From NCBI RefSeq assembly GCF_011022235.1, contig NZ_JAAIYP010000039.1, positions 248,001-312,000 of the forward strand: DNA of 64,000 nt. The letters run 5' to 3'. Below the pieces are notes generated by a model that was not told the DNA's origin, did no database searches, and saw only the letters and a program-made list of their open reading frames with translations. The DNA comes from Magnetospirillum aberrantis SpK (GTDB lineage Bacteria; Pseudomonadota; Alphaproteobacteria; Rhodospirillales; Magnetospirillaceae). Each line of letters starts with the position of its first letter. The first letter of the stretch is position 1. Of the stretch, positions 27,030 to 40,439 are shown piece by piece. The position numbers and the translations under genes are program-made.

Positions 27030-27065
27030 CGTCTCCTAGACGTGAAGCCTCCCTGTTTGACTTAG
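27030..27065 (+). repeat. attL: 36-bp direct repeat
   Basis: Identical over 36 bases to 40373-40408 and in the same orientation. It starts with the dyad CGTCT-CCT-AGACG and ends in TTGACTTAG right at the foot of a terminator stem. Together with the integrase gene beside the other copy, this marks the ends of the integrated element. Confidence 0.92.
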
Positions 27066-27095
27066 CCCCGTGGGAAACCACGGGGCTTTCTTTTT
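27066..27095 (+). terminator. element-borne terminator restoring the RNA gene
   Basis: A perfect eight-base stem CCCCGTGG/CCACGGGG with a GAAA loop followed by CTTTCTTTTT. It starts at the first base after attL and differs in sequence from the host terminator left beyond attR, so it was brought in by the element. Confidence 0.88.
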
Positions 27096-27146
27096 CAAGG
27101 GGTTAGCGGGCGCGATTACGGGAGCCGTCCGATTGCCCACGGGCGC

Positions 27147-27170
27147 CATGGGCAATCTGTGGGCAAAATT
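27147..27170 (+). repeat. integrase arm-type repeat, left end
   Basis: CATGGGCAATCTGTGGGCAA followed by AATT contains two TGGGCAA units in tandem, and an inverted copy (TTGCCCA) lies just before at 27133. The same tandem pair occurs at 40201-40223 near the other end, about 100-170 bases from the core repeat on each side, as expected of integrase arm sites. Confidence 0.65.
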
Positions 27171-27275
27171 TTGCAGATATGCTGCTGCGCGCGGCACCCA
27201 CCCCAGGTTCAGGCGGGTATTGGTCGATGCCTCCCCCGCTGGCGGAGCCGCTACCGCTCGGAGAGGGGGCGCCCC

Positions 27276-28091
27276 CTAGTAGAGCGTGGCGTTGGGGCTG
27301 CGAATGACAATCGGGTCCGGCCGCCCCAAGGAACCAGCCGCGTAATCGGGATGCACCCAACCTGCCCCCGACGACGTACCGGCCTCCCAGCCGCCGAGCG
27401 AAGACGGCGCCCATTCCGCCCCGGCGGGCGGAGCACCGATATTGGCGGGCGGCGCACCAGTGCCGAAGAGGCCCCCGGCGTTTGCGATCCCAAGCCCCAT
27501 GCCGGCGAGAGACAACCCCATACCCAAGGGGCTGAACCCGGAGCCGCCCGCGCGAGAGGCCGCCTGATATTCGAGTGGGAAGACGCCCGACGACCCCTTG
27601 GAGAAATTCCCCCACATGCCCACGTTGCCGCCGCCCTGGTTGAGCATCTCGGCGTTGCTGAACGTGCGGTCCCCGAAGCCTTGCAGCTTGGCCTTGGCCG
27701 AGAGCTGCTGGCGGGTCTGCGACAGGGCCTCGGAAAGCGTCTTGGCGTTGGCGTCCTGGATCACCTTCGGAGCGTCAGACGACGCTCCCAGGCTCGCCAT
27801 CTCGGCGTTGTAGTCCCGGCTTCCAGGCACCACGGCATCGTAGGCCGCCTGCCGCTCGGCGGTCTTCTTGTCGGTGAGTTCGTCCTGGGCGGGGCGGTCC
27901 ATCTGGTCAAGTTCACCCTGCCAGATGTTGAGCGCCTCGTCCTGGTAGCGCCGCTGGCGCGCGGCCTCCGCCTCGGACGCCGCTGACATGGCGGCGTCCG
28001 ACTTCTTGCGCGCCGCGTTCTGTGCCCGGTTCTGTTCCAGGGCACCGGCAACGGACATAACCGCAGCGGCGGCGGAGATCGCGTCACACAT
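27276..28091 (-). CDS. virion-associated-like phage protein, unknown function
   Basis: 271 residues from the ATG at 28091, chosen because GGAGG stands six bases before it. It starts MCDAISAAAAVMSVAGALEQ with an Ala-rich helix, then a charged helical stretch (ARRKK, EAEAARQRRYQDEALNIWQG) and a Gly/Ala-rich tail (GMGLSLAGMGLGIANAGGLF). This layout is typical of small internal virion or ejection proteins in podovirus-type phages, but I recognise no specific family. It follows the next gene by ten bases and forms a unit with it. Confidence 0.6.
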   Translation of the reverse strand: MCDAISAAAAVMSVAGALEQNRAQNAARKKSDAAMSAASEAEAARQRRYQDEALNIWQGELDQMDRPAQDELTDKKTAERQAAYDAVVPGSRDYNAEMASLGASSDAPKVIQDANAKTLSEALSQTRQQLSAKAKLQGFGDRTFSNAEMLNQGGGNVGMWGNFSKGSSGVFPLEYQAASRAGGSGFSPLGMGLSLAGMGLGIANAGGLFGTGAPPANIGAPPAGAEWAPSSLGGWEAGTSSGAGWVHPDYAAGSLGRPDPIVIRSPNATLY

Positions 28092-28101
28092 GGTCGCCTC
28101 C

Positions 28102-28743
28102 TTACGGACTGTTGATGACCTTGGAGCTACCGGCGGCCGAGGTGCTGGGACTGCCAAACAGCCCGGTTTGCTTCAAGCGGTCGAGGACGCCGCTGCCATC
28201 CGGGTAGACAGGCAGTCCGCCGTATTTGAGGCTGCCGGCGATGTTGGAAAACAACTGCCCCAAGGGCGAGAACGTCGGTTTCATGGACAAGGCGGATGCG
28301 CTCGACGCGGCGGCCGACGCGGCAGCGGTCGGATCGGCCGTGCTTTGGAGCTGCGCCACGAGGTTCGACCGCTCGTTGGAAACGGACGTGCGCGCCTGTT
28401 TTTCCTGATTGATCCCTTCGTCCGCGATGGCCGCGCGGTTCAGGTCGTATTCCTTCTGGAGATCGGCTTGTTTCGAGCCGGCGATGGTGCTGTCCTGGAT
28501 GCCGTTCCGCGCCAGCGCGTAGGCAAGGCTTTCCTGAGCCTTCTTGTACTGGTCTTCGACCTGGGGCGCAGCGAAGTCCGTGTAGCTCTGGCGAATGGAA
28601 CCGAAGTACGGATCGTCGAACTTCGAGAACGCCGTGTCGATCTTGCCCATACCCTCACGGATACGAGCCTGCCGGGCCTCCTCGGCGGCACGGGCCGCAC
28701 CAGCGCCGCCGTCTCCGCCTCCACCACCACCTCCTCCACACAT
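28102..28743 (-). CDS. virion-associated-like phage protein with poly-Gly N terminus
   Basis: 213 residues. It begins MCGGGGGGGGDGG and becomes a charged helical protein (AARAAEEARQARIREGMGKI, FDDPYFGSIRQSYTDFAAPQ) with an Ala/Ser-rich hinge (PTAAASAAASSASALS). MCGGG-type starts are often seen in phage structural clusters. GGAGG precedes the ATG. Probably translated with the downstream gene at 28091. Function not known. Confidence 0.6.
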   Translation of the reverse strand: MCGGGGGGGGDGGAGAARAAEEARQARIREGMGKIDTAFSKFDDPYFGSIRQSYTDFAAPQVEDQYKKAQESLAYALARNGIQDSTIAGSKQADLQKEYDLNRAAIADEGINQEKQARTSVSNERSNLVAQLQSTADPTAAASAAASSASALSMKPTFSPLGQLFSNIAGSLKYGGLPVYPDGSGVLDRLKQTGLFGSPSTSAAGSSKVINSP

Positions 28744-28837
28744 GGCACATCCTCCTAATCGCTGCTGCCGGCAGGATATGAAGCCGCCCGGCTACGCGAA
28801 ATTGTTTCCAACCCAGCCCCCACCATCAGGGAACGGA

Positions 28838-29428
28838 TCAGGCCGCTCTGGCTGGCCTGATCGCCTCGGGCAGCAACGCCACCACACCGGCCGGCACGCC
28901 CGAATACGCCCCCAGGCGTTCACCGGGGCGGCCATCGAACCACGCAGTGATGTCGGCCGCGTGGGTCGTCGCCGCTCGCTGGTCCAGCCACTCCACCCAG
29001 CCGTCCGCCGGGGCGCCGGCCTGTTCGCCGCACCAGTCGTCGGCAACGTCGTGAAGGCGCGCCTCGTGGCGCACCAGCCGCGAGGCCAAGCGGCGCGGAA
29101 GCCGCTCGCCGTAGGCCAGGGCGCGGAACCCCTCCAGCACGTCGAGAATGGCGGCCTCAATGGCGTCATGGTCCTCGCCGGCCGGCAGGGCGCAGACCAC
29201 ATCAACGGCGCGGTTCAACCATGCCGCAGCATCGGTGAAGCCCGGAGCCGGGTAGGGATGCGGCTTCTCTTTCGCCCGATCCAAAAGGATATAGATGACC
29301 TTGTGCAGCGTATGGGCGATGCCGTCCAAATAAAGACCGCCTTCGATGGCGGGTGAGAGCGCGTCAAGCGTGTCGTGGATGTGGGGCGGATTTCCGCTGA
29401 TCTTGTGTGCGCGCAGATACTCCGACAT
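28838..29428 (-). CDS. hypothetical protein of the element
   Basis: 196 residues, MSEYLRAHKISGNPPHIHDT, with a conserved-looking helical middle (YLDGIAHTLHKVIYILLDRA) and an acidic C-terminal half (WCGEQAGAPADGWVEWLDQR). No family recognised. It has its own promoter with a perfect TATAAT 36 bases upstream of the ATG. The neighbours downstream on the same strand are the two virion-like genes, so it may head that transcript. Confidence 0.6.
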   Translation of the reverse strand: MSEYLRAHKISGNPPHIHDTLDALSPAIEGGLYLDGIAHTLHKVIYILLDRAKEKPHPYPAPGFTDAAAWLNRAVDVVCALPAGEDHDAIEAAILDVLEGFRALAYGERLPRRLASRLVRHEARLHDVADDWCGEQAGAPADGWVEWLDQRAATTHAADITAWFDGRPGERLGAYSGVPAGVVALLPEAIRPARAA

Positions 29429-29463
29429 GGAAGCCTCGCGGATAGTTGGTAGAACGCGAGGAT

Positions 29464-29492
29464 ATTATAGCTCACACCAAGCGGTGTTGACA
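29464..29492 (-). promoter_or_regulatory. promoter and palindromic operator before the 29428 gene
   Basis: On the minus strand the -10 is TATAAT (29469-29464), and a palindrome ACACC-GCTT-GGTGT (29474-29487) fills the spacer next to a TGTCAA that may serve as -35. The dyad placement between the promoter elements suggests a repressor site. Confidence 0.6.
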
Positions 29493-29572
29493 CAATATCT
29501 ATGCAGGGCCAGAGCTTTGGCGACGATATGTTGCGCTGAGGCAACACGGCGCGGGCGGCGGAGATGGTCGGT

Positions 29573-29652
29573 GGCCTGCCCCCGCGAGTTGGTGGAAAAC
29601 TCCTATGGATAGTTACTATAGGAGAATTCCACCAACTCGCTGAGGGCAGGCC
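29573..29652. repeat. 80-bp palindromic element, copy 1
   Basis: The core (29584-29640) has arms GCGAGTTGGTGGAA and TTCCACCAACTCGC continued by CTCCTAT/ATAGGAG with an AA/AA mismatch, around an 11-base loop. An outer pair GGCCTGCCC/GGGCAGGCC extends it. A near-identical core recurs at 35124-35180. No T-run, so not a plain terminator. It lies in the 433-base non-coding stretch 29429-29861, which otherwise shows only the promoter at 29464 and G-rich sequence. Confidence 0.85.
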
Positions 29653-29861
29653 AGGGTCCAAGATTTTGCTCGGCGCGGAATTTTTCCGGAGCGCCCGGCA
29701 TTGGGAGAAGTTTGCGCTTCGGGGCAAGCCCAGGGGGTGGGGTGGGGGTGTGAGCGGATGCGCTGCCCCGCGATCCGGAGGGAGCAAGCGGAGGGCGGAC
29801 CGAAGCGGCCCGCCTCCAAGTAATAGCTTGTCGGCCGTGAGGTTTCCGGACGGATAGTCCG

Positions 29862-30014
29862 TTACTGGGGGAGATATCCCTTCTCCCGAAGATGCGCGGC
29901 CAACAGCCGCTCGACATACGCGGCCAGGGTGCGACCATCTTCCTTCGCGGCCTTTTCGGCGGCCTCCTTCACATCGGGCGTCACGCGGACCGATATCGCG
30001 GCATCCTTCCTCAT
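29862..30014 (-). CDS. ribbon-helix-helix DNA-binding protein
   Basis: 50 residues from the ATG at 30014, MRKDAAISVRVTPDVKEAAE with the CopG/RelB-type fold: a beta strand (AAISVRV), then helix KEAAEKAAKEDGRTLAAYVE and a second helix. Such proteins act as antitoxins or small repressors. No toxin gene follows it. It is divergent from the 30118 gene across a region with inverted TGTGTGCAG sites that it might bind. Confidence 0.75.
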   Translation of the reverse strand: MRKDAAISVRVTPDVKEAAEKAAKEDGRTLAAYVERLLAAHLREKGYLPQ

Positions 30015-30034
30015 TGTGTTCTCTCCGCATTCAT

Positions 30035-30098
30035 TGTGTGCAGATAGGCATTGACGGCTGCACTCGTCGTAAGCATACTGCACACATTCGCACACAGC
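30035..30098 (+). promoter_or_regulatory. divergent promoter region with inverted operator sites
   Basis: Plus-strand promoter TTGACG (30051-30056), 17-base spacer, CATACT (30074-30079). Inverted copies TGTGTGCAG (30035-30043) and CTGCACACA (30078-30086) flank it, with a further CGCACACAG at 30090. The spacing suggests a looping or dimer-of-dimers repressor, plausibly the ribbon-helix-helix protein encoded to the left. Confidence 0.6.
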
Positions 30099-30117
30099 GT
30101 CAACCCGGAGCCACGCC

Positions 30118-30450
30118 ATGCTTACCGCCGCCAGGATCAACGCCGAATTCGCCGCCGCCGGTCTGCCCTACGCCTTGGAGAGCTTTCACGGTCCGGCGGG
30201 TCTGTGGGCGGTGGTTTCCACCGTCACGGACGACGCCGTGGCGGAACAATGGGCCTGTGGGGAGGCCGAGGCCGTGACCTGGGCGCGGGCGTGGCTGGAG
30301 AACGTGAAGCGGCGCCCCAAGGCGTCCGTGGTGGTCCTGTCGGACCGGCGGCGCCCGATGCTCCCGGCGGGTTCGATGACGACGCCGAGGGCTACGCTCG
30401 CAGGGTCTACGCATTCTCGCCCCTGCGAGGGAGTAGGCGCCCGACCCTAG
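30118..30450 (+). CDS. small protein with the N-terminal domain of the 31375 regulator
   Basis: 110 residues. The first 65 (LTAARINAEFAAAGLPYALE, then GLWAVVSTVTD and AVTWARAWLENVK) align with the first 60 of the HTH protein at 31375-31932 (VRRLNSQLAAASIPLRLEKY, VWSLTSEATG, AVARARAWLRLNN). It lacks the HTH part, and the tail is low-complexity. The shared domain may mediate dimerisation, so this could be a modulator of the longer protein. The fold is unknown to me. Confidence 0.6.
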   Translation: MLTAARINAEFAAAGLPYALESFHGPAGLWAVVSTVTDDAVAEQWACGEAEAVTWARAWLENVKRRPKASVVVLSDRRRPMLPAGSMTTPRATLAGSTHSRPCEGVGARP

Positions 30451-30510
30451 CACATGGGATCACGCAAGCGAGAGGCCGCCGGGACGGTGGCCCTTTCGCA
30501 TTTTCCGGGG

Positions 30511-30611
30511 TGTACGGAAAACCCCGCGAATTTGCTTCTACCAATGTGGCGCATTCCGTGGGGTTCGCAGGCGCCGGAAAGGGTGTTCGGCAAACGGTTG
30601 GTTTCCGTACA
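30511..30611. repeat. 10-bp inverted pair upstream of the serine recombinase
   Basis: TGTACGGAAA (30511-30520) and TTTCCGTACA (30602-30611) are perfect inverted copies about 80 bases apart. The second ends 49 bases before the recombinase ATG. They could be recombinase half-sites or regulator sites; nothing else is seen in 30451-30659. Confidence 0.45.
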
Positions 30612-30659
30612 GGCATGGCATAGCCTGACGGCCGGCCGGAACCAGTAGAGGAGAACAAC

Positions 30660-31289
30660 ATGACCAAGTGCGCGGTGATGTACCTTCGCGTCTCGACGGA
30701 CGGGCAGACGACCGAGAACCAGCGCCTTGAACTTGAGGCCGTCGCCAACCGGGCAGGTTGGGAAATCGCGGGGGTGTATGAGGATGCCGGGATCAGCGGC
30801 GCCAACGGCCGCGACAAGCGGCCGGCATTCGATCGGCTGTGCAAGGACGCCACCCGCCGCCGCTTCGATGTGGTGATGGCGTGGTCGGTGGACCGGCTCG
30901 GGCGGAGCCTGCAAGACCTTGTGGCCTTCCTGGGGGAACTCCATTCGGTCGGAGTTGACCTGTTCCTCCACCAACAGGGGGTGGATACGACCACGCCGGC
31001 CGGCAAGGCGATGTTCCAAATGCTCGGGGTGTTTGCCGAATTCGAGCGCGCCATGATCCGTGAACGGGTCAACGCCGGCTTGGCGCGGGCGCGGCAGCAA
31101 GGGAAGACACTCGGACGGCCGAAGGTGGCCGACGCGACCGAGGCCGCTATCCGGGCGGCGCTGGCAGCCGGCGGGACTGGCGTCCGAAAAATTGCCGGAC
31201 GGTTCGGCGTAGGCGTCAGCGTGGTTCAGCGCATCCGGGCGGAAATGGCGGAACAGGCCGCATCGTCCGTCCGAAATGGTCCGGAATGA
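30660..31289 (+). CDS. serine recombinase (resolvase/invertase family)
   Basis: 209 residues. The catalytic Ser12 lies in CAVMYLRVSTDGQTTENQRL; conserved Arg residues lie in MAWSVDRLGRSLQDLV and FAEFERAMIRERVNAGLARA. The C-terminal helix-turn-helix is GVRKIAGRFGVGVSVVQRI. Size and domain order are those of small resolvases/invertases (Pin/Tn3 type), not large serine integrases, so it more likely resolves dimers or inverts a segment than integrates the element. AGGAGA precedes the ATG. Confidence 0.93.
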   Translation: MTKCAVMYLRVSTDGQTTENQRLELEAVANRAGWEIAGVYEDAGISGANGRDKRPAFDRLCKDATRRRFDVVMAWSVDRLGRSLQDLVAFLGELHSVGVDLFLHQQGVDTTTPAGKAMFQMLGVFAEFERAMIRERVNAGLARARQQGKTLGRPKVADATEAAIRAALAAGGTGVRKIAGRFGVGVSVVQRIRAEMAEQAASSVRNGPE

Positions 31290-31374
31290 GGACGGGGGAT
31301 ATTCGCCACCCCAAACCCTAGACGGCGTTGATTTCCCCGGCCCAAGATGTGCGCGGAACCATCGGATAACTCGA

Positions 31375-31932
31375 ATGACGACGCCCGTTCGGCGGCTGAA
31401 CAGCCAACTTGCCGCCGCCAGCATCCCGCTCCGACTGGAGAAATACCCCCGTTCCCGCGTGTGGTCGCTCACCTCTGAGGCGACTGGCGACGTAGAGGCC
31501 GTTTTCGCTGCTACCACTCCCGGAAAAGCTGTCGCCAGGGCGAGAGCATGGCTCAGGCTCAATAACTACCGGGTGCCGGACCAGTCCGGAACGCAAGGCA
31601 GCGCCGACGACCTGTTGACCCAAGACGAGGTGGCGGAAATCCTCGGGTGTACCCCCGATACAGTCTACCGCATCCGCCGGGCCGGCAAGCTGCCCTACAT
31701 CCCAGGCCGTCCGGTCAAAATCCTCCGCTTTGACCTGAACGCATACCTCGCCTCGGAAGAGGCTCAGGCGGAAGCCAGGGCCAAGGCCAAGACGGCATCT
31801 ATTGAGGATCATCTGAACCCGCGCCTCATGGGGAAGGTGCTGGCCGCCGGGAAGAAAGGCGCGCAAGACCCGTATTCCCTCGGGCGAACCCTCGCCCTCC
31901 GCGCCCGCGCCACCGGCAAGGGGCCTTGGTGA
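31375..31932 (+). CDS. excisionase-type HTH regulator with novel N-terminal domain
   Basis: 185 residues from the ATG at 31375. The N-terminal 60 residues match the protein at 30118. Residues about 80-130 form a MerR/excisionase-like helix-turn-helix (LLTQDEVAEILGCTPDTVYR, then GKLPYIPGRPVKILRFDLNA). The C terminus is basic. It follows the recombinase by 85 bases on the same strand and could be its directionality or regulatory partner. A start further upstream would add residues with no match to the paralogue. Confidence 0.7.
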   Translation: MTTPVRRLNSQLAAASIPLRLEKYPRSRVWSLTSEATGDVEAVFAATTPGKAVARARAWLRLNNYRVPDQSGTQGSADDLLTQDEVAEILGCTPDTVYRIRRAGKLPYIPGRPVKILRFDLNAYLASEEAQAEARAKAKTASIEDHLNPRLMGKVLAAGKKGAQDPYSLGRTLALRARATGKGPW

Positions 31933-31945
31933 AACCACCCCCTCA

Positions 31946-32035
31946 TTCCCACGGACTGTTGCTGGCGTTCGAACCGGGCGCGCGTCGATGGTTGATGCGT
32001 TCGCTTGGGCGCCGGCTTCTCTCGACCAATTGGCT
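31946..32035 (-). pseudogene. duplicated 3' fragment of the terminase small-subunit gene
   Basis: About 85 bases starting at CTCATTCCCACGG align with 33896-33985, the 3' end of the terminase small-subunit gene, with scattered differences and small gaps. On the minus strand both end in the codons for SPWE and stop. No upstream part of the gene is recognisable, so it is a remnant. Confidence 0.6.
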
Positions 32036-32382
32036 CCTCCGTTCTCCCCTCACGCAAAATTTCTGCCCGGTGGCAGGGATGGGCTTGTGCTCGTTCGCCA
32101 GCACGGAGGCGGAGCGCGGTCGCCCACGAGGACCAATGACCACGTTTTCCCGAATGATCGGCGCCGACTATGCGCGCCAGAAAGGGCGTGGGCGATGATC
32201 CGGGAATGGTGCCGCCTGGAGGGTGGCTGCTTCTCAGCATGGGTGTTGCCAAAGCCCCTCTGTTCCCTGTCGGTAAGGTACTGGGGCGCAAGCCGACGCG
32301 CACCACCCCACCCGGTTCGGCTAGGCGCCTTCGGCAATAATGTGGTGTAAGCTGGTCGAGCATTACTTGCAGGGAGGCGAGA
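32036..32382. other. non-coding stretch, nothing recognised
   Basis: About 350 bases between the terminase remnant and the small membrane protein. Frames here have no start signals or recognisable protein features. It may be decayed phage DNA. Confidence 0.4.
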
Positions 32383-32583
32383 ATGGGCGCCTTATTCCGT
32401 GCCATCGCAACGCGGCATTCGCGGACCGCCGCGTTCGTTGCGGCCATCGGATCGGGAGCGTTCTCCACCGCGACGGCATTCACGCCAACCCGTGCGTTGG
32501 GCAATTTCCCGCCCGTCGATCCTGGGCTAATCGCCCTCGGGGCCGCGCTATTTGCATTGGCGTGGGTGGTCCGGCCTCGATGA
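32383..32583 (+). CDS. small membrane protein, possibly holin-like
   Basis: 66 residues, MGALFRAIATRHSRTAAFVA, with two hydrophobic segments (AAFVAAIGSGAFSTATAF and GLIALGAALFALAWVV) and a basic end. A strong GGAGG lies seven bases before the ATG, like other genes of the element. Two-helix small proteins of this size in phages are often holins, but the evidence is only size, topology and context. It converges with the 33759 gene. Confidence 0.55.
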   Translation: MGALFRAIATRHSRTAAFVAAIGSGAFSTATAFTPTRALGNFPPVDPGLIALGAALFALAWVVRPR

Positions 32584-32598
32584 CCAGACCACCGGCTG

Positions 32599-33759
32599 TC
32601 AGCCGTCGATATCCACCCCAAGCTGTCGGAGGCGTTCGCGCACCTTGGCTGGATCGGCACCGCGCTGGAGAGCTGCTTCCGCTTCGCGGATGATCTGGTC
32701 CCGTTGCGCCCCGCCTGCCCGCGCCTCAGGTGCCGGCAGGTTGCTACCCCGCTTCAATGACGGATCGGGCCGGACGGTGTTGGTCCAAAACGGGTTCCAG
32801 CGCCCTTCGGTATGCGGGTTCGGCCCCATCACCTCCCGCCACGCCTGTTCGGCCGCCGTTCCCGCGTCACGGGATTGCTGATAGAGTTCCCCGGCGCGCG
32901 CCAACACGGCGTTGCGGTCGGCGTTCTCCATCTCATAGCCGTCAGGGACCAGATGGCCGATCAGGGCGTCCATGCCCCGCATGTCGGAGGGGGAAACGTC
33001 AATCGGCCCGCCTGCCCGGCCAGCGGCGGGCGGCTGTCCCTGGATCACCGGGCGCTTGGCAATCTGCGGATCGGCCGGATAGATGTTTTCGCCGGGCGCC
33101 ACGCTCGCCTGTCCGGAGAATACGTTGGCAACACCAAGGGCCTTTTGGCGCTCGGGCGAGAACAGCACCGTCTCGTTCTGTCCGATCTTGGCGTCCGCGT
33201 TGGCGAACTTCCACCGTTCGCGGTCGTCGGTCAGGCTGTGACCGGCCATCGCCGCTTTGTAGTCCAGCCCCGCGTCGTAGCGTCGGTCGGCGCTGTCCAT
33301 GTCCTGACCGCGCCGCTGGGTGGCGTCCGCCCGCGCGAAGCCAAGCGGAGTGTGCCCCCACTGACCACCCGCGCCCGCGATCATGTTGGACATGACCGTC
33401 AGGTCAATATTGTTGGGGTCGCCAGCGGCGTAGCCGGCGCGCATCATCTCCCCGGCGCGATGGGCTTGCTCGGGGTATGCCTGCGCCCAGGCAGTGACGG
33501 CACGTTGGCGCTTGCCGGCGTCGGCAAACAGGTTCGGATCACCAAAAAGGCCGTCCGCCATGGAACGGCGTCGGGCCACGTCCTGGTTCAGCTGCGCTTC
33601 GGATTGGGCTTTGCCGGCGGCGGCGCTGTAGTAGCCCTCTTGGGCCTGCTGGAGCTTGTGCTTGGCCGCAAGTTCGGGATCGCCAAAAAGAGACTTGGCA
33701 AGACCAGAAGCGGCAGAAAGCACGCTCAGATATTCGCTGTTGCCGTCCGGATAAGGCAT
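32599..33759 (-). CDS. virion-associated-like phage protein, unknown function
   Basis: 386 residues, largely helical and polar. It begins MPYPDGNSEYLSVLSAASGL and has Ala/Gln-rich helices (AKHKLQQAQEGYYSAAAGKA), a central region with repeated GLFGDPN-type turns, and a C-terminal helical part (QRDQIIREAEAALQRGADPA). No enzymatic motif. It resembles ejection or internal virion proteins in composition only. AGGAGG precedes the ATG. It lies just downstream of the terminase small subunit gene on the same strand. Confidence 0.6.
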   Translation of the reverse strand: MPYPDGNSEYLSVLSAASGLAKSLFGDPELAAKHKLQQAQEGYYSAAAGKAQSEAQLNQDVARRRSMADGLFGDPNLFADAGKRQRAVTAWAQAYPEQAHRAGEMMRAGYAAGDPNNIDLTVMSNMIAGAGGQWGHTPLGFARADATQRRGQDMDSADRRYDAGLDYKAAMAGHSLTDDRERWKFANADAKIGQNETVLFSPERQKALGVANVFSGQASVAPGENIYPADPQIAKRPVIQGQPPAAGRAGGPIDVSPSDMRGMDALIGHLVPDGYEMENADRNAVLARAGELYQQSRDAGTAAEQAWREVMGPNPHTEGRWNPFWTNTVRPDPSLKRGSNLPAPEARAGGAQRDQIIREAEAALQRGADPAKVRERLRQLGVDIDG

Positions 33760-33897
33760 TGTTGCCTCCTAGTAGATACCTGATGTATATGCCTAATTAT
33801 CACTGCACGACACTGTTTCTATAATGCACCATGGCGACACAAGGTGTCGCGCAGCGCCTCTCCAACGGCACGGTTCTACGTGCTACCGCGTGCAATC

Positions 33898-34416
33898 TCA
33901 TTCCCACGGGCTGGTGTCACTCGAAATCGGAAGCGCGTCGATGGTGATTACGTTCGCCTGAGCGCCAGCCTCACGGCGCAAGTCCTCGACCACGGCCAGG
34001 GCGTTTTCGAGGCGCTGGCGCTGATCCATGGCGAACCGCTCCAATTCCTCGACCGTCATTTCGGACAGTCCGCGCGCGCCCTCCTCATCTTCGATTGCCC
34101 GGCCGCGCTCATTGAGGAAGTTGGCCGCCTGCAAGGTTAACTGCGCCCCTTTGAGACGGACGCCACCGGGTTGAGTGGAATCGCGCATGATCTCCTCGAT
34201 CACCGTCAAGGCAGTCGGCACCAGGTCGCCCTCGATGCGAGCCTTGAACCGCGCCCGAAGGGCCGCCTGCACGGATGGGGTTCTCTGGAGCCGATAAGCG
34301 ATCTGCCCCGCGTGAACGGCCGGCTCATAGCCGGCGGCGCGGGCGGCGTCGGTGGGGGTCATGCCGCGCACGACGGCATCAACGAACGCCTGTTGCTTTT
34401 CGGTCAAACTAGACAA
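33898..34416 (-). CDS. terminase small subunit-like DNA-packaging protein
   Basis: 172 residues from a TTG at 34416. Signature: LTEKQQAFVDAVVRGMTPTD followed by AARAAGYEP, the N-terminal HTH of the Terminase_2/TerS group, then an oligomerisation helix and an acidic tail. TerS recognises phage DNA for packaging. The start is set by GGAGAGG six bases upstream; an earlier in-frame TTG at 34479 is really the -35 of the promoter. No large terminase is present, so it may redirect a helper phage's packaging, as TerS does in SaPI satellites. Confidence 0.72.
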   Translation of the reverse strand: MSSLTEKQQAFVDAVVRGMTPTDAARAAGYEPAVHAGQIAYRLQRTPSVQAALRARFKARIEGDLVPTALTVIEEIMRDSTQPGGVRLKGAQLTLQAANFLNERGRAIEDEEGARGLSEMTVEELERFAMDQRQRLENALAVVEDLRREAGAQANVITIDALPISSDTSPWE

Positions 34417-34443
34417 TTCCGGCCTCTCCAACAGGGGTGGAAT

Positions 34444-34479
34444 GCACGGTATTATGATACCGTGCTTAAGAGTAGACAA
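34444..34479 (-). promoter_or_regulatory. promoter with palindromic operator before the terminase gene
   Basis: Minus-strand -35 TTGTCT (34479-34474), 17-base spacer, -10 CATAAT (34456-34451). A perfect palindrome GCACGGTAT-TATG-ATACCGTGC (34444-34465) covers the -10, so a repressor there would block initiation. The transcript would start close to 34444, 28 bases before the TTG start. Confidence 0.72.
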
Positions 34480-34489
34480 GTCTCCCCGC

Positions 34490-34684
34490 TCAATGACGCC
34501 TGATTTCCAAATCGGCCAACCAAGCTATGTGGTTCAATCGCGCCACCACCCCCAGGTCAAACATCAGGGCCTCAAACTCGGGGCGCAGGTCTTCCCTCCC
34601 GTGGTGGTCGATCAACTCCGCCAACAACGCCGCATGGCGTAGCGCACTGCGGACGTACTCCTTGGTGTCGGGATCGGCGTTCAT
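34490..34684 (-). CDS. small hypothetical protein coupled to the helicase
   Basis: 64 residues, MNADPDTKEYVRSALRHAAL, helical and acidic (LAELIDHHGREDLRPEFEAL). Its ATG overlaps the helicase stop by four bases, so it is translationally coupled to the replication genes. No family recognised. Confidence 0.6.
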   Translation of the reverse strand: MNADPDTKEYVRSALRHAALLAELIDHHGREDLRPEFEALMFDLGVVARLNHIAWLADLEIRRH

Positions 34685-37209
34685 GGCGCGGCCCTCCCCG
34701 TGCCGGCGCCTGCGATCAGTCGATTGCACGCCGCGATGAAGGCGGGAACCCCAGCTTCCTGTTGCAGCAGATGGATACCCAGCGCATCGCGCATGGCCTC
34801 GGGCAGCCCTTTGAGCCGTCCTTTGCGCGCCTCCCTCTGGAGCCAGTCGGAGTAGCCGAGAGCGGCGGCAATCTGCTCAAGGGTGAAGGTGGCGGGTTGC
34901 TGTTCCACGGGCGCCGCCTGCGGCTTCGGGGGCGGTACGGGTTGTTCGGCCGGCTTGGCTTCCGGAACCGGCATCGGGATAGGCGCGGCCTCCCAGCGGT
35001 CAAGCTGGCCCAACCACCGTTCAGCGGCGGCGCGGGGGTCTGGATGCTGGCGGGTGTCGATCCACACCGAGGCAGACTGGCGCTCCCCGCCGCGGCGGTA
35101 TTTGAACGCCGCCCACCCCTCCCGCGACTTGGTGGAAAACTCCAATAGAGAGGTACTATAGGAGAATTCCACCAACTCGCCGTTGGCCCATTTGTCCAAG
35201 GTGGCCGCGTCCTCCTGGTGGTGCCGCAACCAGTCCTTGCACGCTTGATGCCCCTTCGCGCCCGGTCCGAACACGTCCGCCAACACGGCAGCCCGTCCGC
35301 GCCCATCCAGGGGAACGACGCCGCGAGCGAACAGTAATCCGGGCGGGCCGGCGATCCGTTGCGCCTCCTCCCACGTCACCACCTCTACCGGCTCGGGGAT
35401 CACCACGTCCGTAAGCAGATAGATGGTCAACGGGTGGTCGGCGCCACGCCGCACGCCGCGCCCCCGGCCGATGGCCTGGAGAATTTCCGCCTCGCAGATG
35501 GAACGGCGCACCATCTCCGCCAATCGGTCGGGATGGTGGTCCACCTCGGCGGACAATCCGGACCCGTCCGCCAACAACCGCCCGCCCGTCCGCGTCGAGT
35601 ACCATTCACCACTCGACAAGCGCGCGACGGGCGTCCCGGTGATGATCTCGGCCAAGTCTTCGACCTCTCCCGGCGATGCCTGCGTGCGCCCGACGATCAC
35701 CAAGGCGGATACGCCCTTGTAGCGATCAAGGCCCCGCATCCCGTTCAGATGCGCGACTGCGAGATTGCCCGGCAGGCGTCCGCTCAGGCGGCCCTTCGCG
35801 CCTTTCTCGGGATCACCCACCAAGGCCAGTTGCCCGATCAGCAGCACGTCCACCCGCTGGCCGTCAGGGAGAACTACGCCGCGCCCGTGATGGGTGGCGG
35901 CCACCACCTCCACGAATTGCGCCACCTTGGCTTGGTTGTTCAGTGCGGTTTTTCGGTGCTTGTCCTCGGGCGGCTTGCTCTCGTCGTCGATCAGCGAGGT
36001 TTGCGAGAACGTCTTGTCCACCACCTGGACGATGCGTTGGTACGGTTTGGCGGCGGTGACGGCGGGGGCGACATTCAGCCGGGGAAGCCATGCGCGCGTA
36101 AGCTCAGGCGTGCCGGTGGCGTCGAGATACACCGTCGCCGCATCCCAGCCGGCGTGGATCGGCTTGCGCCACTTGAGCGCCACGCTCACCGAGGCCCCGT
36201 GCTGGCGCCGCTGGATCGCGGCAGCCGTGGTGCGCCCGTCGAGCAAGTCAGCCGCGATTTCCAGGAGCCGTGTCACCCTGCGGACCCGTCCGGTGGTTTT
36301 CGCCGCGTCCGCCAGGGCCGCCGCGATCTGGTCGGCGGCCATGTCGGGCCGATATAACTTCCTCACCTCCGCATCGCCGGGGTAGCACCGCCGCGCAAGG
36401 TTGAACGCCCGCTGGAGCCGCGATCCCGTAAGACCTGCCGTCCGGAAAGGGCCGTCCGGAACGCGGCCGTTGCTGGCGCTGGTGATTGCGGCCCCCAGGG
36501 CGCCAAAAACCTCGTGAAGTTCTCGCTTCGCCCAGCCCGGCCGGTCCCCATCCGCGTCGGGACGATCCGGCGGGTTCCACAGCTCGGGCGCCAAGTCTTC
36601 AAGAGGGACCGCGTAGGGCTTGGCGCCGAAGCCGCCCAACAAGGCGGTATGGAACGCCTCGTCGATCACCAGCATGTCGAAGGCCGGCTGTTCGGCCTCG
36701 CTGCCGTCCGGCAACGGCACCTTGGGGCGCCGCATCGACATCGGGACCGCTTCGGCCAGCATGTTCACCGGGAACACCACGACGGGAGCGCCGCGCACCT
36801 GTTCCCGCTGGCGGAGATAGCCGCACCCGTCCTCGCCAGCCACGGCGGGGTTGTAGCGGCAGAAGCCGCCCTCGCGCCGCTTGGAGCCGCACAAGCCTTC
36901 CCGGTCGTGGGTCACGCCCAGAACGGCGGCCAGGGCGTCAGCACGGGGGCACATCTTCCCGCCGGGGCACGCCGGGTCTTCCTGTTCGGGGCCACGCCAC
37001 ACAACGGCCAACCGCTCCCCGGCCACCTCGTTGATCCTCGCCACCACCTCGGCCGCGATCTTGTGATTGGCCGTGGCGTAGGCGATCCGTGCGCCTTGGC
37101 GTGCGAGGGTGGGGATCGTATTTACGATCTCGTGGGTCTTGCCCACGCCCACGTCAACCACGATGGCGGTTTGCGGGCTTTCCGGACGAATGACGCTGCC
37201 GGCGGTCAT
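34681..37209 (-). CDS. superfamily 2 helicase with cysteine cluster (XPD/DinG-like layout)
   Basis: 842 residues. Walker A is VVDVGVGKT (residues 17-25), unusually close to the start. Walker B is LVIDEAFH (DEAF, 183-187). Between them lie five Cys (81, 87, 107, 117, 129), placed where XPD/DinG helicases bind an Fe-S cluster. Motif VI is ILQAIGRGRGVRRG. The tail is Pro/Gln-rich and ends in a helical domain. It overlaps the primase gene by four bases, suggesting a replication pair. Residues about 677-695 are encoded by an inserted palindrome. An Fe-S cluster is inferred; zinc is possible. Confidence 0.75.
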   Translation of the reverse strand: MTAGSVIRPESPQTAIVVDVGVGKTHEIVNTIPTLARQGARIAYATANHKIAAEVVARINEVAGERLAVVWRGPEQEDPACPGGKMCPRADALAAVLGVTHDREGLCGSKRREGGFCRYNPAVAGEDGCGYLRQREQVRGAPVVVFPVNMLAEAVPMSMRRPKVPLPDGSEAEQPAFDMLVIDEAFHTALLGGFGAKPYAVPLEDLAPELWNPPDRPDADGDRPGWAKRELHEVFGALGAAITSASNGRVPDGPFRTAGLTGSRLQRAFNLARRCYPGDAEVRKLYRPDMAADQIAAALADAAKTTGRVRRVTRLLEIAADLLDGRTTAAAIQRRQHGASVSVALKWRKPIHAGWDAATVYLDATGTPELTRAWLPRLNVAPAVTAAKPYQRIVQVVDKTFSQTSLIDDESKPPEDKHRKTALNNQAKVAQFVEVVAATHHGRGVVLPDGQRVDVLLIGQLALVGDPEKGAKGRLSGRLPGNLAVAHLNGMRGLDRYKGVSALVIVGRTQASPGEVEDLAEIITGTPVARLSSGEWYSTRTGGRLLADGSGLSAEVDHHPDRLAEMVRRSICEAEILQAIGRGRGVRRGADHPLTIYLLTDVVIPEPVEVVTWEEAQRIAGPPGLLFARGVVPLDGRGRAAVLADVFGPGAKGHQACKDWLRHHQEDAATLDKWANGELVEFSYSTSLLEFSTKSREGWAAFKYRRGGERQSASVWIDTRQHPDPRAAAERWLGQLDRWEAAPIPMPVPEAKPAEQPVPPPKPQAAPVEQQPATFTLEQIAAALGYSDWLQREARKGRLKGLPEAMRDALGIHLLQQEAGVPAFIAACNRLIAGAGTGRAAP
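35124..35180. repeat. 57-bp palindromic element, copy 2, inside the helicase gene
   Basis: Matches 29584-29640 at about 50 of 57 positions, with the same arms (TTGGTGGAA...TTCCACCAA) and an ACTATAGGAGAATT core half. It is read in frame as GELVEFSYSTSLLEFSTKSR. Its length is a multiple of three, so insertion would not break the helicase frame. Confidence 0.85.
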
Positions 37210-38534
37210 GCCCAGACCTCGCTATCGTCCAACTGGACATCGGCCGCGACGAAGTCGTCGCGCGCATCCGTGCGACCGTCTGCGGGCATCCCCGCCGCGA
37301 TCCAAGCCGAACGCCGCGCAAGGAAGTCCTCGACCTCTCCAACAAAACCGGCAATCACATTCCGGACGGTGCCGGCGGCCTCGGCCAGCGTGGCGACGGG
37401 CAAAGCGAAATCGGGCGTGCAGGGCTTGCCGATCCGGCTGGGGCGCCACCCTGTCGATTTCGCCAGCCAATAGATGGTGCCGGCACCCGAACGGATTTCA
37501 GCGTCCCGGATGCCGTCCCATACCCGAAGCGAGGCCGCCGGGTCGCCGCTGGATTTCGGCGCGGACAGCGACCAATCCAGCCAGATTTCCCGCGCTTCGC
37601 CCGTGTCACCCAGCGCGCCCTTGATCGCGTGCGCCATGCCCACCCAATCGGCGCGGGGGAAATCGTCGTTCTTGATGCTGACGAGGGCTGCTTTCAGTTC
37701 GTGCGGGTCTTTGGCGAGGTATTCGGCGCGCGGCCGGCGCGGAGCGTCCCGCTCAGGATTGCCGTGAAGCCGGCTTTTGGACTTCTCCGCCCCACCGTGC
37801 TCGCGGAGGATCGCATCCGCCGCGTCGATCGCCGCCATGAGCTGGTCCGAGCCGATCAGCGGCAAACCCACGGGCTGAATGCCCAGGACGTCGCTCTCGG
37901 GCCAGGAATACGGACGCCCGGTTCCGGGATGAACGCCGAAGAGGACGCTCTGCCGCCCCTTCCCCAACACTTCCAACCGATGGGCCTTCTGGTGGGGATC
38001 ATCACCGGGCATCGCGTAGCCGGTGGTGGCGATTTCGCCCTTGGGCAGAGCGTCACGCACCCGGTAGAAGCGCGTCCGCTTCGGCGGCGCGCCGACACGA
38101 ACGGGCGTGCGCCCCAGCATCCGTACCAACAGGGCGTCGATGGCATCCGCCGCGCCGGCATGGCGAACGTCGTTGTCCAGCGCGACAACGGTGCTGCCGT
38201 CTGACAGTTGGAAGCCCATGGCGCACCCGACGCTATGCGGAGGCCAATCCTCGCACCAATAGGCCACCAGGGACGCGGCGGGGAGGCCGATATCCTGCCA
38301 GCCCCCATAGGTCCACCAACCGGTGTCGGTCCACTTGCCGGGGGCCTTGCCCCGCGCGGCCTGCACTTCGCGGAAGCGCGCCTCGTCGATCTGCTTTCCG
38401 CTCGGCCAAGGTGCCGTCCGGATATGCGCGTCGGGGGGTAGGATGGGTAGAACGGGCCAGCCGTTGGCCTGCAATCGCGGGCCGTATTCCCGCATGAAAT
38501 GCGCGGGCGTATCTGCTATCTTTCGATCCGACAT
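37206..38534 (-). CDS. primase-polymerase with PriCT-type C-terminal domain
   Basis: 442 residues from the ATG at 38534 (GGAGG upstream). The N-terminal half fits the bifunctional primase/polymerase fold: KWTDTGWWTYGGWQDIGLPA, VGCAMGFQLSDGSTVVALDN with acidic residues, and HRLEVLGKGRQSVLFGVHPG. The C-terminal part (HELKAALVSIKNDDFPRADW, MAHAIKGALGDTGEAREIWL) resembles PriCT_2, which joins primase to a helicase. The partner helicase is encoded next, overlapping by four bases. Together they would replicate the element. Confidence 0.8.
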   Translation of the reverse strand: MSDRKIADTPAHFMREYGPRLQANGWPVLPILPPDAHIRTAPWPSGKQIDEARFREVQAARGKAPGKWTDTGWWTYGGWQDIGLPAASLVAYWCEDWPPHSVGCAMGFQLSDGSTVVALDNDVRHAGAADAIDALLVRMLGRTPVRVGAPPKRTRFYRVRDALPKGEIATTGYAMPGDDPHQKAHRLEVLGKGRQSVLFGVHPGTGRPYSWPESDVLGIQPVGLPLIGSDQLMAAIDAADAILREHGGAEKSKSRLHGNPERDAPRRPRAEYLAKDPHELKAALVSIKNDDFPRADWVGMAHAIKGALGDTGEAREIWLDWSLSAPKSSGDPAASLRVWDGIRDAEIRSGAGTIYWLAKSTGWRPSRIGKPCTPDFALPVATLAEAAGTVRNVIAGFVGEVEDFLARRSAWIAAGMPADGRTDARDDFVAADVQLDDSEVWA

Positions 38535-38610
38535 GAAGCCTCCAGCCCGTGAACGCCGGGCGCGGTGGAACGCAAACGGGGTCGCCTTGCCGGGCGGCCC
38601 CGTGGTCGTT

Positions 38611-38841
38611 TCAGGGGGTGGCGTTCTGCGGGCTTCCGGTGGACGGGGCGGCGGCTTCCAGCGAGGCGAGCCAAGTATTGATCGCGCTTTCTCGCCACGC
38701 GATGCGGCCATTCGGGAAGCGGATCGGCGCCGGAAAGTTGCCAGCTTCAATCTGCCTGTGAAGCGCGGACCGGCTGCGGATGATGTTGCGCGCCTTCAAG
38801 TCGGAGAAGTCGAGAAGGCTGTTTTCCTGTTTGGCACTCAT
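38611..38841 (-). CDS. AlpA-family regulator/excisionase
   Basis: 76 residues from the ATG at 38841. The HTH is FSDLKARNIIRSRSALHRQI followed by FPAPIRFPNGRIAWRESAIN, the AlpA pattern (LPxPIRxGxRxxxWxxxE). AlpA activates or acts with the integrase in P4-like elements. It lies between the integrase and the replication genes, the usual place. A TTG frame start further upstream coincides with the probable -35 and is rejected. Confidence 0.85.
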   Translation of the reverse strand: MSAKQENSLLDFSDLKARNIIRSRSALHRQIEAGNFPAPIRFPNGRIAWRESAINTWLASLEAAAPSTGSPQNATP

Positions 38842-38850
38842 GATTGCCTC

Positions 38851-38904
38851 TGCCAGCGGTAAACTCTGGCAACTATTGAGAGGCAATGAGAAACCTAGCG
38901 TCAA
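38851..38904 (-). promoter_or_regulatory. AT-rich promoter and operator of the alpA-replication operon
   Basis: Minus-strand TTGACG (38904-38899) is a probable -35, with CAATAG/TCAATA near 38880 as a weak -10. An inverted repeat TGCCAG/CTGGCA (38851-38871) lies between it and the ATG. The 120 bases from here to the integrase stop are notably AT-rich. Confidence 0.45.
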
Positions 38905-38964
38905 TTACTTTCGTTTTTTGTTTGCAATGCTGTATGCGACAATCTTAATGCAAAAATCTAGCGA

Positions 38965-40191
38965 TCATTCAGGGTTTTTGCGCTTTTCCTCTTCGATAAA
39001 TTTTTCCAAGCTGTATGCGACACTTTCCAGCGCCGAACGCATCGCTTCATCCCGCCGCGACCGCTCATACGTGGCGGTGATGCCCATGCGGCTACGCGGG
39101 CTGTGGTTGAGAACCCGGCTGATAATGGCCTCGTCAGCGCCGGCCTCACCCATCATGCTGGCGGCAGTGCGGCGCAGGTCGTGGATCGTCCAAGGGGCGG
39201 ATAGGGCGGCCTTGGTCTGGAGGTTCTGCGCGGCCCTTCGCCACCCCGCATAGGGTTTGCGGCCGCCTCGGGCAGAGAACACGTACCCCCGGTCCTCCGT
39301 GCCATCGCTGGTGAACCGGGGCAGTTGGTTGAGCATGTCAACCACGGCCTTGGGCAGTGGCAGGCGATGCTCCCGCTTGGCCTTGGTCCGCTCCGCCGGG
39401 ATCGTCCAGTATCCGTTTTCCAAGTCGAACTCGGACCATCTCGCCTGCGTCACCTCTTCCCGACGCTGGCCGGTCAGAAGCAGTAGGCGGACGAGAGGCG
39501 CGACGGGATACCCGACGCCATCCGCCGCCAAGATAACCTTTGCAACCTCATCGCCTGACAGGACGCGCTCACGCGGCTTCTCCGGAACCATCCGCTTGAT
39601 GACTGCGGCGGGGTTCGCTGCAATTTCGCCGGCCTCGACGGCCCAATTGAGAAAGGTCTTCGTCTGCGTTAGGACGCGATTAACCTGGGCGCCGAACCCG
39701 CCATCGCGGAGCTTTTCTAGCAGGACGTACACATGGCGCCGCTCGACCGCGCCAATCGGCATGTCGCCAATCTCTGGCAGGACGTGCAGGTCCAAAAGAC
39801 GCTCCTGCTCGCCAACGGATCGAAGCCCCTTTCGTCGTTGAGCGCGGATGAACCTTTCGGCCGCCACGCGAACCGTTGTTGAAGCGGTCGTGGCCTCAGT
39901 TGTCGTCGCCGCTGCTGCGGGGTCTGTTCCGTTCTTCGCCAATGCCAGCGCGTCCAGGGCTACCCGGCGGGCCGCTTCCAGCGAAATATGATCGGGGGCC
40001 TCGGGACGGTACTCCCCCAAGGCCATGCGGCGGTGCTTGCCGTCGATCCGATACCGGAGCGCCCAAGAGCGCACACCGTTCGCAGTCACGCGAATTTGAA
40101 GCCCGGTCACTGCTGCGTCGGTGACTTCGACGACGCCGGACATGGGGGGCTTGATTGACTGAATGGTGCGGTCGGTCAGTTGGCGCTTCAT
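38965..40191 (-). CDS. tyrosine integrase (P4-like, DUF4102 N terminus)
   Basis: 408 residues from the ATG at 40191, chosen for GGAGG upstream and the typical MKRQLTDRTIQSIKPP N terminus. The DUF4102 domain (LQIRVTANGVRSWALRYRID) is followed by a SAM-like core-binding domain. The catalytic set is Arg in LLTGQRREEV, Lys in ERTKAKREHRL, HDLRR, the His in LNHSPRS and Tyr in TATYERS. It integrates and excises the element at the 36-bp repeat, whose right copy lies 180 bases upstream of the gene. Confidence 0.96.
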   Translation of the reverse strand: MKRQLTDRTIQSIKPPMSGVVEVTDAAVTGLQIRVTANGVRSWALRYRIDGKHRRMALGEYRPEAPDHISLEAARRVALDALALAKNGTDPAAAATTTEATTASTTVRVAAERFIRAQRRKGLRSVGEQERLLDLHVLPEIGDMPIGAVERRHVYVLLEKLRDGGFGAQVNRVLTQTKTFLNWAVEAGEIAANPAAVIKRMVPEKPRERVLSGDEVAKVILAADGVGYPVAPLVRLLLLTGQRREEVTQARWSEFDLENGYWTIPAERTKAKREHRLPLPKAVVDMLNQLPRFTSDGTEDRGYVFSARGGRKPYAGWRRAAQNLQTKAALSAPWTIHDLRRTAASMMGEAGADEAIISRVLNHSPRSRMGITATYERSRRDEAMRSALESVAYSLEKFIEEEKRKNPE

Positions 40192-40200
40192 GGCGCCCTC

Positions 40201-40223
40201 CGTGGGCAATTCATGGGCAAAAT
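40201..40223 (+). repeat. integrase arm-type repeat, right end
   Basis: CGTGGGCAATTCATGGGCAA followed by AAT matches the tandem TGGGCAA pair at 27147-27170. An inverted single copy (TTTGCCCATGG) lies at 40261, and a GACGGC/GCCGTC hairpin at 40226-40243. These sit in the integrase leader, so integrase binding could also repress its own gene. Confidence 0.65.
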
Positions 40224-40372
40224 GACGGCGACTTGCCGTCACCATCCAATCATTGACACCTTTGCCCATGGGGTGCAAGGGTGTGGTTAAGCATGGGAAA
40301 TGCTGGGATATTTTCGGCATCTGGCTTCGCGTCCGAAATGCCTATCGGTGACGGACGGGAGATGGTGCGGGG

Positions 40373-40408
40373 CGTCTCCTAGACGTGAAGCCTCCCTGTT
40401 TGACTTAG
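40373..40408 (+). repeat. attR: 36-bp direct repeat
   Basis: Second copy of the repeat at 27030-27065, same orientation. It is followed directly by the original host terminator, so it marks the true 3' end of the disrupted RNA gene. Confidence 0.92.
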
Positions 40409-40439
40409 GCCCTGGCGTAAGCCGGGGCCTCTTCTTTTC
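40408..40439 (+). terminator. orphaned host terminator of the RNA gene
   Basis: GGCCCTGGC/GCCGGGGCC (one T-G pair) with a GTAA loop, followed by TCTTCTTTT. Before integration it would have followed the 36-bp segment of the small RNA gene. Confidence 0.8.

What the first reader, a model, noticed from the sequence alone, without database searches (positions are those of the whole stretch)
27030..40408. Compact satellite-like element with TerS, primase-polymerase and helicase but no capsid genes
The 13.4-kb element has integrase, AlpA, primase-polymerase, helicase, a terminase small subunit, a serine recombinase and three virion-like proteins, yet no large terminase, portal, capsid or tail. In SaPI/PICI-type satellites a TerS redirects the helper phage's packaging machine. 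Here a TerS travels with possible ejection-type proteins, a combination that would be a new satellite design in an alphaproteobacterium.
Basis: partly seen in the sequence, partly recalled or inferred. Interest (0 to 1): 0.8.

Follow-up and report, generated by a model that had tools for sequence, protein, structure and literature searches.

The report
Podophage-parasite island with own injection proteins
A 13-kb mobile DNA island in an alphaproteobacterium looks like a parasite of viruses: it has its own replication genes and appears to borrow a helper virus's shell, while carrying its own packaging adaptor and three proteins related to those near a virus's DNA-injection genes.

Summary
The island is bounded by a perfect 36-bp repeat (27030-27065, 40373-40408) in a conserved small-RNA-like locus. 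It encodes integrase, AlpA, PrimPol, a helicase-like protein, TerS and three virion-type proteins; no TerL, portal or capsid was recognised. TerS, v213, v293 and v386 are relatives of similar length (38-67% over aligned parts) of genes in one podophage-type prophage (G042), in another order. The backbone has a different origin: the helicase recurs in other genomes, in five of them within repeat-bounded 8-18 kb islands. Two of these carry a TerS of another Pfam family downstream of the helicase. A PICI-like satellite with captured phage late genes fits best; a plain deleted prophage is unlikely. EcCIMP1, an E. coli PICI, is a precedent but lacks a recognisable terminase gene. No helper of this phage type was found in the host genome, no second island with this gene set was found, and mobility is untested. 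New point: a stem-loop inside the helicase gene exceeds all synonymous-codon shuffles in 13 of 21 helicase genes tested (window included), against 0 of 21 control genes, and resembles the pRN1 stem-loop. The window holds a second copy. It is a candidate replication origin.

The parts
27030..27065 (+). attL: 36-nt core inside an sRNA-like locus; a terminator-like site follows at 27064-27087
   Evidence: perfect repeat; weak matches to suhB/mmgR, SorX and SorY below gathering scores; consensus terminator match
27276..28091 (-). v293 (271 aa from MCDAIS): phage internal/ejection-module protein (role inferred)
   Evidence: 67% over 201 aa to the G042 prophage gene; weak profile hit to PDB 9vvp Gp27, E=0.0032
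28102..28743 (-). v213: phage protein encoded shortly before the putative injection protein in RHph_N65
   Evidence: 58% over 190 aa to G042; 45% to RHph_N65; 48 viral loci
28838..29428 (-). orf196, unknown; possibly first gene of the v213-v293 operon
   Evidence: promoter-like consensus match upstream at 29493-29464; no family above a curated cut-off
29584..29640 (.). stem-loop copy A (intergenic)
   Evidence: 57-nt hairpin, similar to copy B; an 18-nt arm motif matches with up to 2 mismatches only within the element
29862..30140 (-). small protein with weak NikA-like match
   Evidence: PF21983 23.9 bits, below cut-off 27
30660..31289 (+). serine recombinase (resolvase/invertase type)
   Evidence: PF00239, E=3e-47
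31276..31932 (+). HTH_17 excisionase-like DNA-binding protein
   Evidence: PF12728, phrog_66
31942..32019 (-). relic of a second TerS 3' end
   Evidence: 75% over 79 bp to the TerS end
32599..33759 (-). v386: phage ejection-module protein (role inferred)
   Evidence: 38% over 216 aa to G042; same position as N65 'putative injection protein', which it matches only at E=0.001
33898..34479 (-). TerS, Terminase_2 family
   Evidence: PF03592 36.3 bits; 42% to the prophage TerS
34681..37209 (-). helicase-like replication protein
   Evidence: 842 aa; matches in 14 of 297 order genomes and, by profile, 14 of 385 class genomes, own genome counted in both
35124..35180 (.). stem-loop copy B, inside the helicase gene
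   Evidence: exceeds all 200 synonymous-codon shuffles
37206..38750 (-). PrimPol-PriCT_2 primase-polymerase (true start probably inside this ORF)
   Evidence: PF09250, PF08707
38611..38904 (-). AlpA
   Evidence: PF05930 over cut-off
38965..40320 (-). tyrosine integrase
   Evidence: PF00589, PF13356, PF22022
40373..40408 (+). attR: second copy of the 36-nt core, followed by a terminator-like site

Best explanation
The element is a PICI-like phage satellite adapted to phages of the RHph_N65/G042 type (podophages by gene content, an inference). Shown: a repeat-bounded 13.4-kb island in an sRNA-like locus, with a satellite-type backbone (Int, AlpA, PrimPol, helicase-like protein) and four open genes related to one phage type, among them TerS. 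Inferred: a helper infects, AlpA and Int excise the island, and PrimPol and helicase replicate it, starting at the stem-loop(s). The island's TerS joins the helper's TerL and directs packaging of island DNA into helper capsids. v213, v293 and v386 are built into those virions in place of, or beside, the helper's own proteins and tune DNA delivery or handicap the helper. The helper supplies TerL, portal, capsid, tail, the large ejection protein and lysis.
For: The four phage-type genes match one prophage and have similar lengths: TerS 193/184 aa, v213 213/216, v293 271/265, v386 386/389, window/G042. No convincing relic of other head genes was seen. The helicase has no match at E<=1e-4 in any of 52 phage loci, many of them partial, but lies in repeat-bounded islands in G038 (8.4 kb, same sRNA-like site), G039 (13.0 kb), G040 (14.3 kb), G007 (17.5 kb) and G174 (8.2 kb). 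In G039 and G040 a TerS of another family (PF05119) lies about 0.9 and 1.3 kb downstream of the helicase part; no capsid gene or TerL was recognised in the G039 ORF list. The layout matches the zones described for Gram-negative PICIs. EcCIMP1 is a mobilised PICI with DNA-transfer-like genes downstream of its primase.
Against: No other island with this TerS plus v-gene set was found: v213 in 3 of 297 order genomes (own, G042, and a weak partial match in G098); two genome-contig scans found nothing (narrow patterns, weak negatives). The host has no capsid gene of this phage type and no Terminase_6N TerL. Of 21 other helicase-bearing loci, 19 show no hit to the TerS queries used (two TerS families only, several loci cut by contig ends), so the backbone alone does not prove a satellite life. 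The TerS relic and the rearranged order show recombination. The ejection role of the v-proteins rests on position and one phage annotation; Foldseek found no significant solved structure for v213.
Confidence: 0.6

Rival explanations
1. Mosaic relic: an integrative PrimPol-helicase element recombined with a decaying prophage, and TerS and the v-genes are leftovers without function.
For: Rearranged order and a TerS 3' relic; the gene set is a singleton in the samples searched; related helicase loci without a TerS hit are the majority, 19 of 21; no resident helper of this type.
Against: All four genes are open and of similar length to the phage genes, and v213, v293 and v386 align from their first residues; no convincing relic of other head genes; in G039 and G040 a different TerS also lies downstream of the helicase part.
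Confidence: 0.25
2. Satellite, but the v-proteins act as anti-helper interference: they mis-assemble into helper virions and spoil DNA injection instead of serving the island's own particles.
For: The 1888-aa virion protein of the prophage has no match in the window, so the set could not form a full apparatus alone; tail-assembly interference systems in prophages and PICIs are described (PMC11364771, title and start of abstract only).
Against: No direct evidence; three genes kept at phage length fit replacement as well.
Confidence: 0.2
3. Not phage-dependent: an integrative mobilizable element that uses other transfer routes, with the phage genes as passenger cargo.
For: Weak NikA-like hit in a 92-aa ORF, below cut-off; other helicase-bearing loci carry varied cargo.
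Against: No relaxase family appeared among the element proteins scanned with Pfam; TerS is a packaging protein with no use outside phage packaging that I know of.
Confidence: 0.08

Closest known systems
EcCIMP1, E. coli PICI helped by phage vB_EcoP_Kapi1 (PMC11773190, passages read)
   Same: Int, AlpA, primase/helicase backbone; genes downstream of the primase similar to DNA transfer proteins and to helper genes; second AlpA-like gene in the opposite orientation; earlier asserted to be a defective prophage
   Different: no recognisable terminase gene; other primase (not compared here) and other host; its transfer is shown experimentally, here it is not. That Kapi1 is a podophage is inferred from its name
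Gram-negative PICIs with captured late genes (PMC10111431, passages)
   Same: 10-20 kb, Int/AlpA zone, replication zone, late zone taken from the helper, most genes on one strand
   Different: captured genes there are most often the capsid; here TerS and ejection-module genes, no capsid
SaPI-type satellites with own TerS (PMC10690885 introduction, passages)
   Same: own TerS, which in some SaPIs redirects helper packaging
   Different: no capsid-size or phage-TerS-inhibitor gene recognised here; such genes were not searched for by sequence
capsid-forming PICIs (PMC10690885 introduction, passages)
   Same: phage morphogenesis genes on an island
   Different: they encode MCP, protease, portal, connectors, TerS and TerL; here only TerS of that list
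pRN1 replicon, PrimPol-helicase with a stem-loop (PMC4234260, abstract, section 14 and part 1 of section 18)
   Same: PrimPol plus helicase; stem-loop conserved in structure, not in sequence, by the replication gene
   Different: pRN1 stem-loop lies downstream of the gene and its helicase is SF3; here it lies inside the helicase coding region and the helicase looks SF1/2-like by eye
Rhizobium phage RHph_N65 and the G042 prophage
   Same: relatives of v213 and v293, of v386 (weak in N65) and, in G042, of TerS
   Different: full head modules; no match to the element's helicase

Membership tests
Gram-negative PICI | 10-20 kb island between att repeats | tested here: met
   13,379 bp from the first to the last base of two perfect 36-nt repeats
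Gram-negative PICI | int, alpA and primase genes | tested here: met
   but the primase is a PrimPol with a separate helicase-like protein
Gram-negative PICI | late zone with helper-derived genes after the replication zone | tested here: met
   TerS, v386, v213, v293 after the helicase, related to one phage type; that this phage type is the helper is inferred
Gram-negative PICI | origin of replication downstream of the primase | tested here: inconclusive
   stem-loop inside the helicase gene and a second copy downstream; function not testable here
Gram-negative PICI | helper-induced excision and transfer | not testable with these tools
   needs a helper phage
Gram-negative PICI | sequence kinship with reference PICIs | not tested
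   no PICI reference set was searched
SaPI-type satellite | own TerS | tested here: met
   PF03592 over cut-off
SaPI-type satellite | capsid-size and TerS-interference genes | tested here: inconclusive
   none recognised by Pfam or PHROGs; several ORFs unknown
capsid-forming PICI | MCP, portal, protease, TerL | tested here: not met
   none recognised in the element
intact prophage of the N65/G042 type | TerL, portal, MCP | tested here: not met
   no convincing match in the element; capsid of this type not found in the whole genome
pRN1-type PrimPol replicon | PrimPol with helicase and a structure-conserved stem-loop at the replication gene | tested here: met
   but the stem-loop is inside the gene, not after it
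pRN1-type PrimPol replicon | SF3 helicase and C-terminal winged helix | tested here: inconclusive
   no Pfam match to the helicase; motifs look SF1/2-like by eye

The most novel reading that the evidence does not exclude
A satellite lineage of PrimPol-helicase islands swaps its packaging module between unrelated phage types: Terminase_2 TerS with podophage ejection proteins here, P27-type TerS in G039, P27 TerS with portal and protease in G040. It replicates from a stem-loop origin hidden inside the coding sequence of its own helicase. The window's element would then retarget both packaging and DNA injection of a podophage, with a second origin-like stem-loop 5.5 kb from the first.
Probability: 0.35. 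Interest if true: 0.75.

Novelty: new variant of a known kind. Interest (0 to 1): 0.55.

Why it matters
If right, satellites can take over not only a podophage's packaging but also parts of its injection apparatus, which bears on how they reach new cells or limit their helper. The gene-embedded stem-loop gives a concrete, testable candidate origin for a replicon type found in 14 of 385 sampled genomes of the class (own genome included; taken to be Alphaproteobacteria), and a handle for finding more of these islands.

Tried and rejected
Tried without result: v213 and helicase single-protein scans of viral contigs; v293 in genome contigs and viral contigs and v213 in genome contigs, where the tool used only two short peptide patterns each, so these negatives are weak; v293 and v386 in the phage collection; PDB profile search for v213, nothing significant, and Foldseek of the v213 model (pLDDT 84.9) against PDB, none at E<=0.001; Foldseek against BFVD gave four matches at E<=0.001, all uncharacterised phage proteins; the v293 model has mean pLDDT 56.7 and was not used; PADLOC, run on 8 of the element's proteins, hit only the HTH protein, weakly; the helicase alignment was too divergent for a viral scan.

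Considered and rejected: a palindrome family spread through the genome (an 18-nt arm motif matches with up to 2 mismatches only in the element; 16 of 20 matches lie outside it, all with 3 mismatches); plain deleted prophage (gene order, separate origin of the backbone); capsid-forming PICI (no head genes). The stem-loop as a mere by-product of the protein sequence is unlikely, because shuffles that keep the protein lose it.

Results against the stem-loop reading: 8 of 21 helicase genes did not pass (G047, G035b, G600, G580, G648, G672; G043 with 3 of 200 shuffles reaching it; G538, where a hairpin lies 354 nt downstream instead). The two sets had 200 and 100 shuffles, the 21 control genes 60 each; the controls were picked by hand. 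The helicase loci of G248, G218, G096 and G235 and of G674, G298 and G346 were not tested. The search allows only symmetric mismatches and loops of 4-15 nt. The hairpins were chosen for pairing, so their 10-12 outer pairs are no independent test; what adds information is that the arms are unlike each other (mean identity 0.27 over the outer 12 nt, 14 hairpins, copy A left out). No formal covariation test was made; a MAFFT alignment of 7 hairpins was not in one register and was not used.
Full report
Boundaries and site. The element lies between two perfect 36-nt repeats, 27030-27065 and 40373-40408, and spans 13,379 bp with them. The repeat belongs to a conserved sRNA-like sequence with weak matches, below gathering scores, to suhB/mmgR, SorX and SorY. 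A 21-nt core motif (up to 2 mismatches) occurs in 34 of 61 genomes searched, and in all 12 other genomes of the genus, as a single copy in 11 of them. The window's upstream flank (LysR gene) matched all eight loci tested, from seven of these genomes, at 86-90%; the downstream flank matched none of them, so an empty site was shown on one side only. Terminator-like sites follow both copies, although such consensus matches are no more frequent in the element than in shuffles. The site is a hotspot: the core is doubled in G020 (13,303 apart), G043 (8,322) and, with three mismatches on one side, in G038 (8.4 kb), each time around an integrase-bearing element.

Genes. On the minus strand: integrase, AlpA, PrimPol-PriCT_2, an 842-aa helicase-like protein, TerS, v386; then, after a plus-strand resolvase and HTH_17 gene, orf196, v213 and v293. 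A promoter-like consensus match lies upstream of orf196.

Relatives of the phage genes. v213 matches Rhizobium phage RHph_N65 (45%) and a Microcystis phage (34%). In N65 its homologue precedes a small protein and a 'putative injection protein'. G042, a genome of the same family, holds a prophage of this type: TerS, TerL (PF03237), portal and major head protein, then v213, v293 and v386 homologues and a 1888-aa protein with a virion-structural PHROG match. That these are podophages is inferred from gene content; the taxonomy lines of the two named phage records say only Caudoviricetes. The window's proteins match G042's at 42% (TerS), 58% (v213), 67% (v293) and 38% (v386, first 216 residues). 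Of 48 viral loci with v213, 38 also hold TerL, portal or capsid; the other 10 have less than 4 kb upstream. In the window the order is TerS-v386-...-v213-v293, in the prophage TerS-...-TerL-portal-...-v213-v293-v386. A six-frame search against 52 phage loci gave no convincing relic of other head genes; two short pieces at E=0.001 and 0.006 were taken as chance.

Origin of the backbone. The helicase matches none of those phage loci, many of which are partial. It is found in 14 of 297 genomes of the order and, by profile at E<=1e-10, in 14 of 385 of the class, own genome included in both. Repeat pairs delimit islands in five of these genomes: G038 8.4 kb, G039 13.0 kb, G040 14.3 kb, G007 17.5 kb, G174 8.2 kb; no long repeat pair was found around the helicase in G047, G043, G115 or the two G035 loci. 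Of seven class loci tested, G491 shows a tRNA-like repeat pair 10.9 kb apart. G039 has integrase, AlpA, fused PrimPol-helicase and a P27-family TerS (PF05119), with no capsid gene or TerL recognised in its ORF list (ORFs of 130 aa or more). G040 has a helicase relative, P27 TerS, a phage portal and a head protease, and no TerL recognised in its list. G174 carries a DUF5681 protein after the helicase and G043 a relative of it. Of 21 helicase loci searched with four TerS queries from two families, only G039 and G040, the sources of two of these queries, matched.

Helper. The host genome has no capsid protein of this phage type (1 of 55 family genomes has it, G042) and no Terminase_6N TerL. It has one other prophage-like site on C34 with TerL_ATPase and Phage_portal matches. 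A helper of the matching type would have to come from outside.

Stem-loop. The element holds a 57-nt hairpin twice: 35124-35180 inside the helicase gene and 29584-29640 in an intergenic region. An 18-nt arm motif matches with up to 2 mismatches only inside the element. Similar hairpins lie in the 3' part of the helicase gene in relatives. Against shuffles that keep the protein and codon usage, 8 of 11 genes (window included) exceed all 200 shuffles and 5 of 10 further genes exceed all 100; 0 of 21 control genes exceed 60. Eight of the 21 helicase genes do not pass; one of these, G538, has a hairpin downstream of the gene. The outer arms share only 27% identity on average over 12 nt (14 hairpins). 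In the window protein the hairpin falls in the poorly aligned stretch between the QAIGRGRG motif and the C-terminal conserved part. This parallels pRN1, whose PrimPol-helicase gene is followed by a stem-loop conserved in structure and required for replication; the authors saw a stem-loop also next to a PriCT_2-type replication gene of Bordetella phage BIP-1 (PMC4234260, abstract, section 14 and part 1 of section 18). I infer an origin of replication; a packaging site is not excluded.

Comparison with the literature. Gram-negative PICIs have Int/AlpA, replication and late zones and capture helper late genes (PMC10111431, passages). EcCIMP1 is a PICI moved by vB_EcoP_Kapi1; genes downstream of its primase resemble DNA transfer proteins, and it lacks identifiable terminase genes (PMC11773190, passages). 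One search found no paper, search 92 one review (PMC6893505, listing and start of abstract seen only), search 101 only the EcCIMP1 paper; subscription papers are mostly not held. The element is best filed as a PICI-like satellite of a new variant; membership of PICIs by descent was not tested.

Noticed in passing
window 29584-29640 and 35124-35180; relatives in L023, L024, L026, L027, L028, L029, L030, L156, L168, L169, L170, L173: A stem-loop of similar shape but different sequence inside the coding region of the satellite-type helicase; candidate replication origin.
   Followed up: partly
window 27024-27101 and 40367-40444: A conserved mmgR/SorX/SorY-like sRNA locus serves as integration site for several different small elements (G000, G020, G043, G038); the terminators after the two copies differ in some of them.
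   Followed up: partly
window 31942-32019: 79-bp relic of a second TerS 3' end, a trace of recombination.
   Followed up: yes
G000:C34 about 310683-313509 (L176, L177): A separate prophage-like site in the host with TerL_ATPase and Phage_portal matches.
   Followed up: no
L026 14477-15073 and L121 10108-10755: A DUF5681 protein (G174) and its relative (G043) follow the helicase, near where TerS lies in others; a possible packaging role is untested.
   Followed up: no
L029 372-14680: A related 14.3-kb island in G040 carries P27 TerS, phage portal and head protease, with no TerL recognised.
   Followed up: partly
L030 12254-13756: The related G007 island carries a protein matching a PHROG of tail proteins with lysin activity.
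   Followed up: no
L121 4070-5310: The integrase next to the G043 helicase appears split into two ORFs.
   Followed up: no
L026 3315-3936 and 10576-11201: 626-bp duplicated primase-region stretch, suggesting two similar islands in tandem in G174.
   Followed up: no
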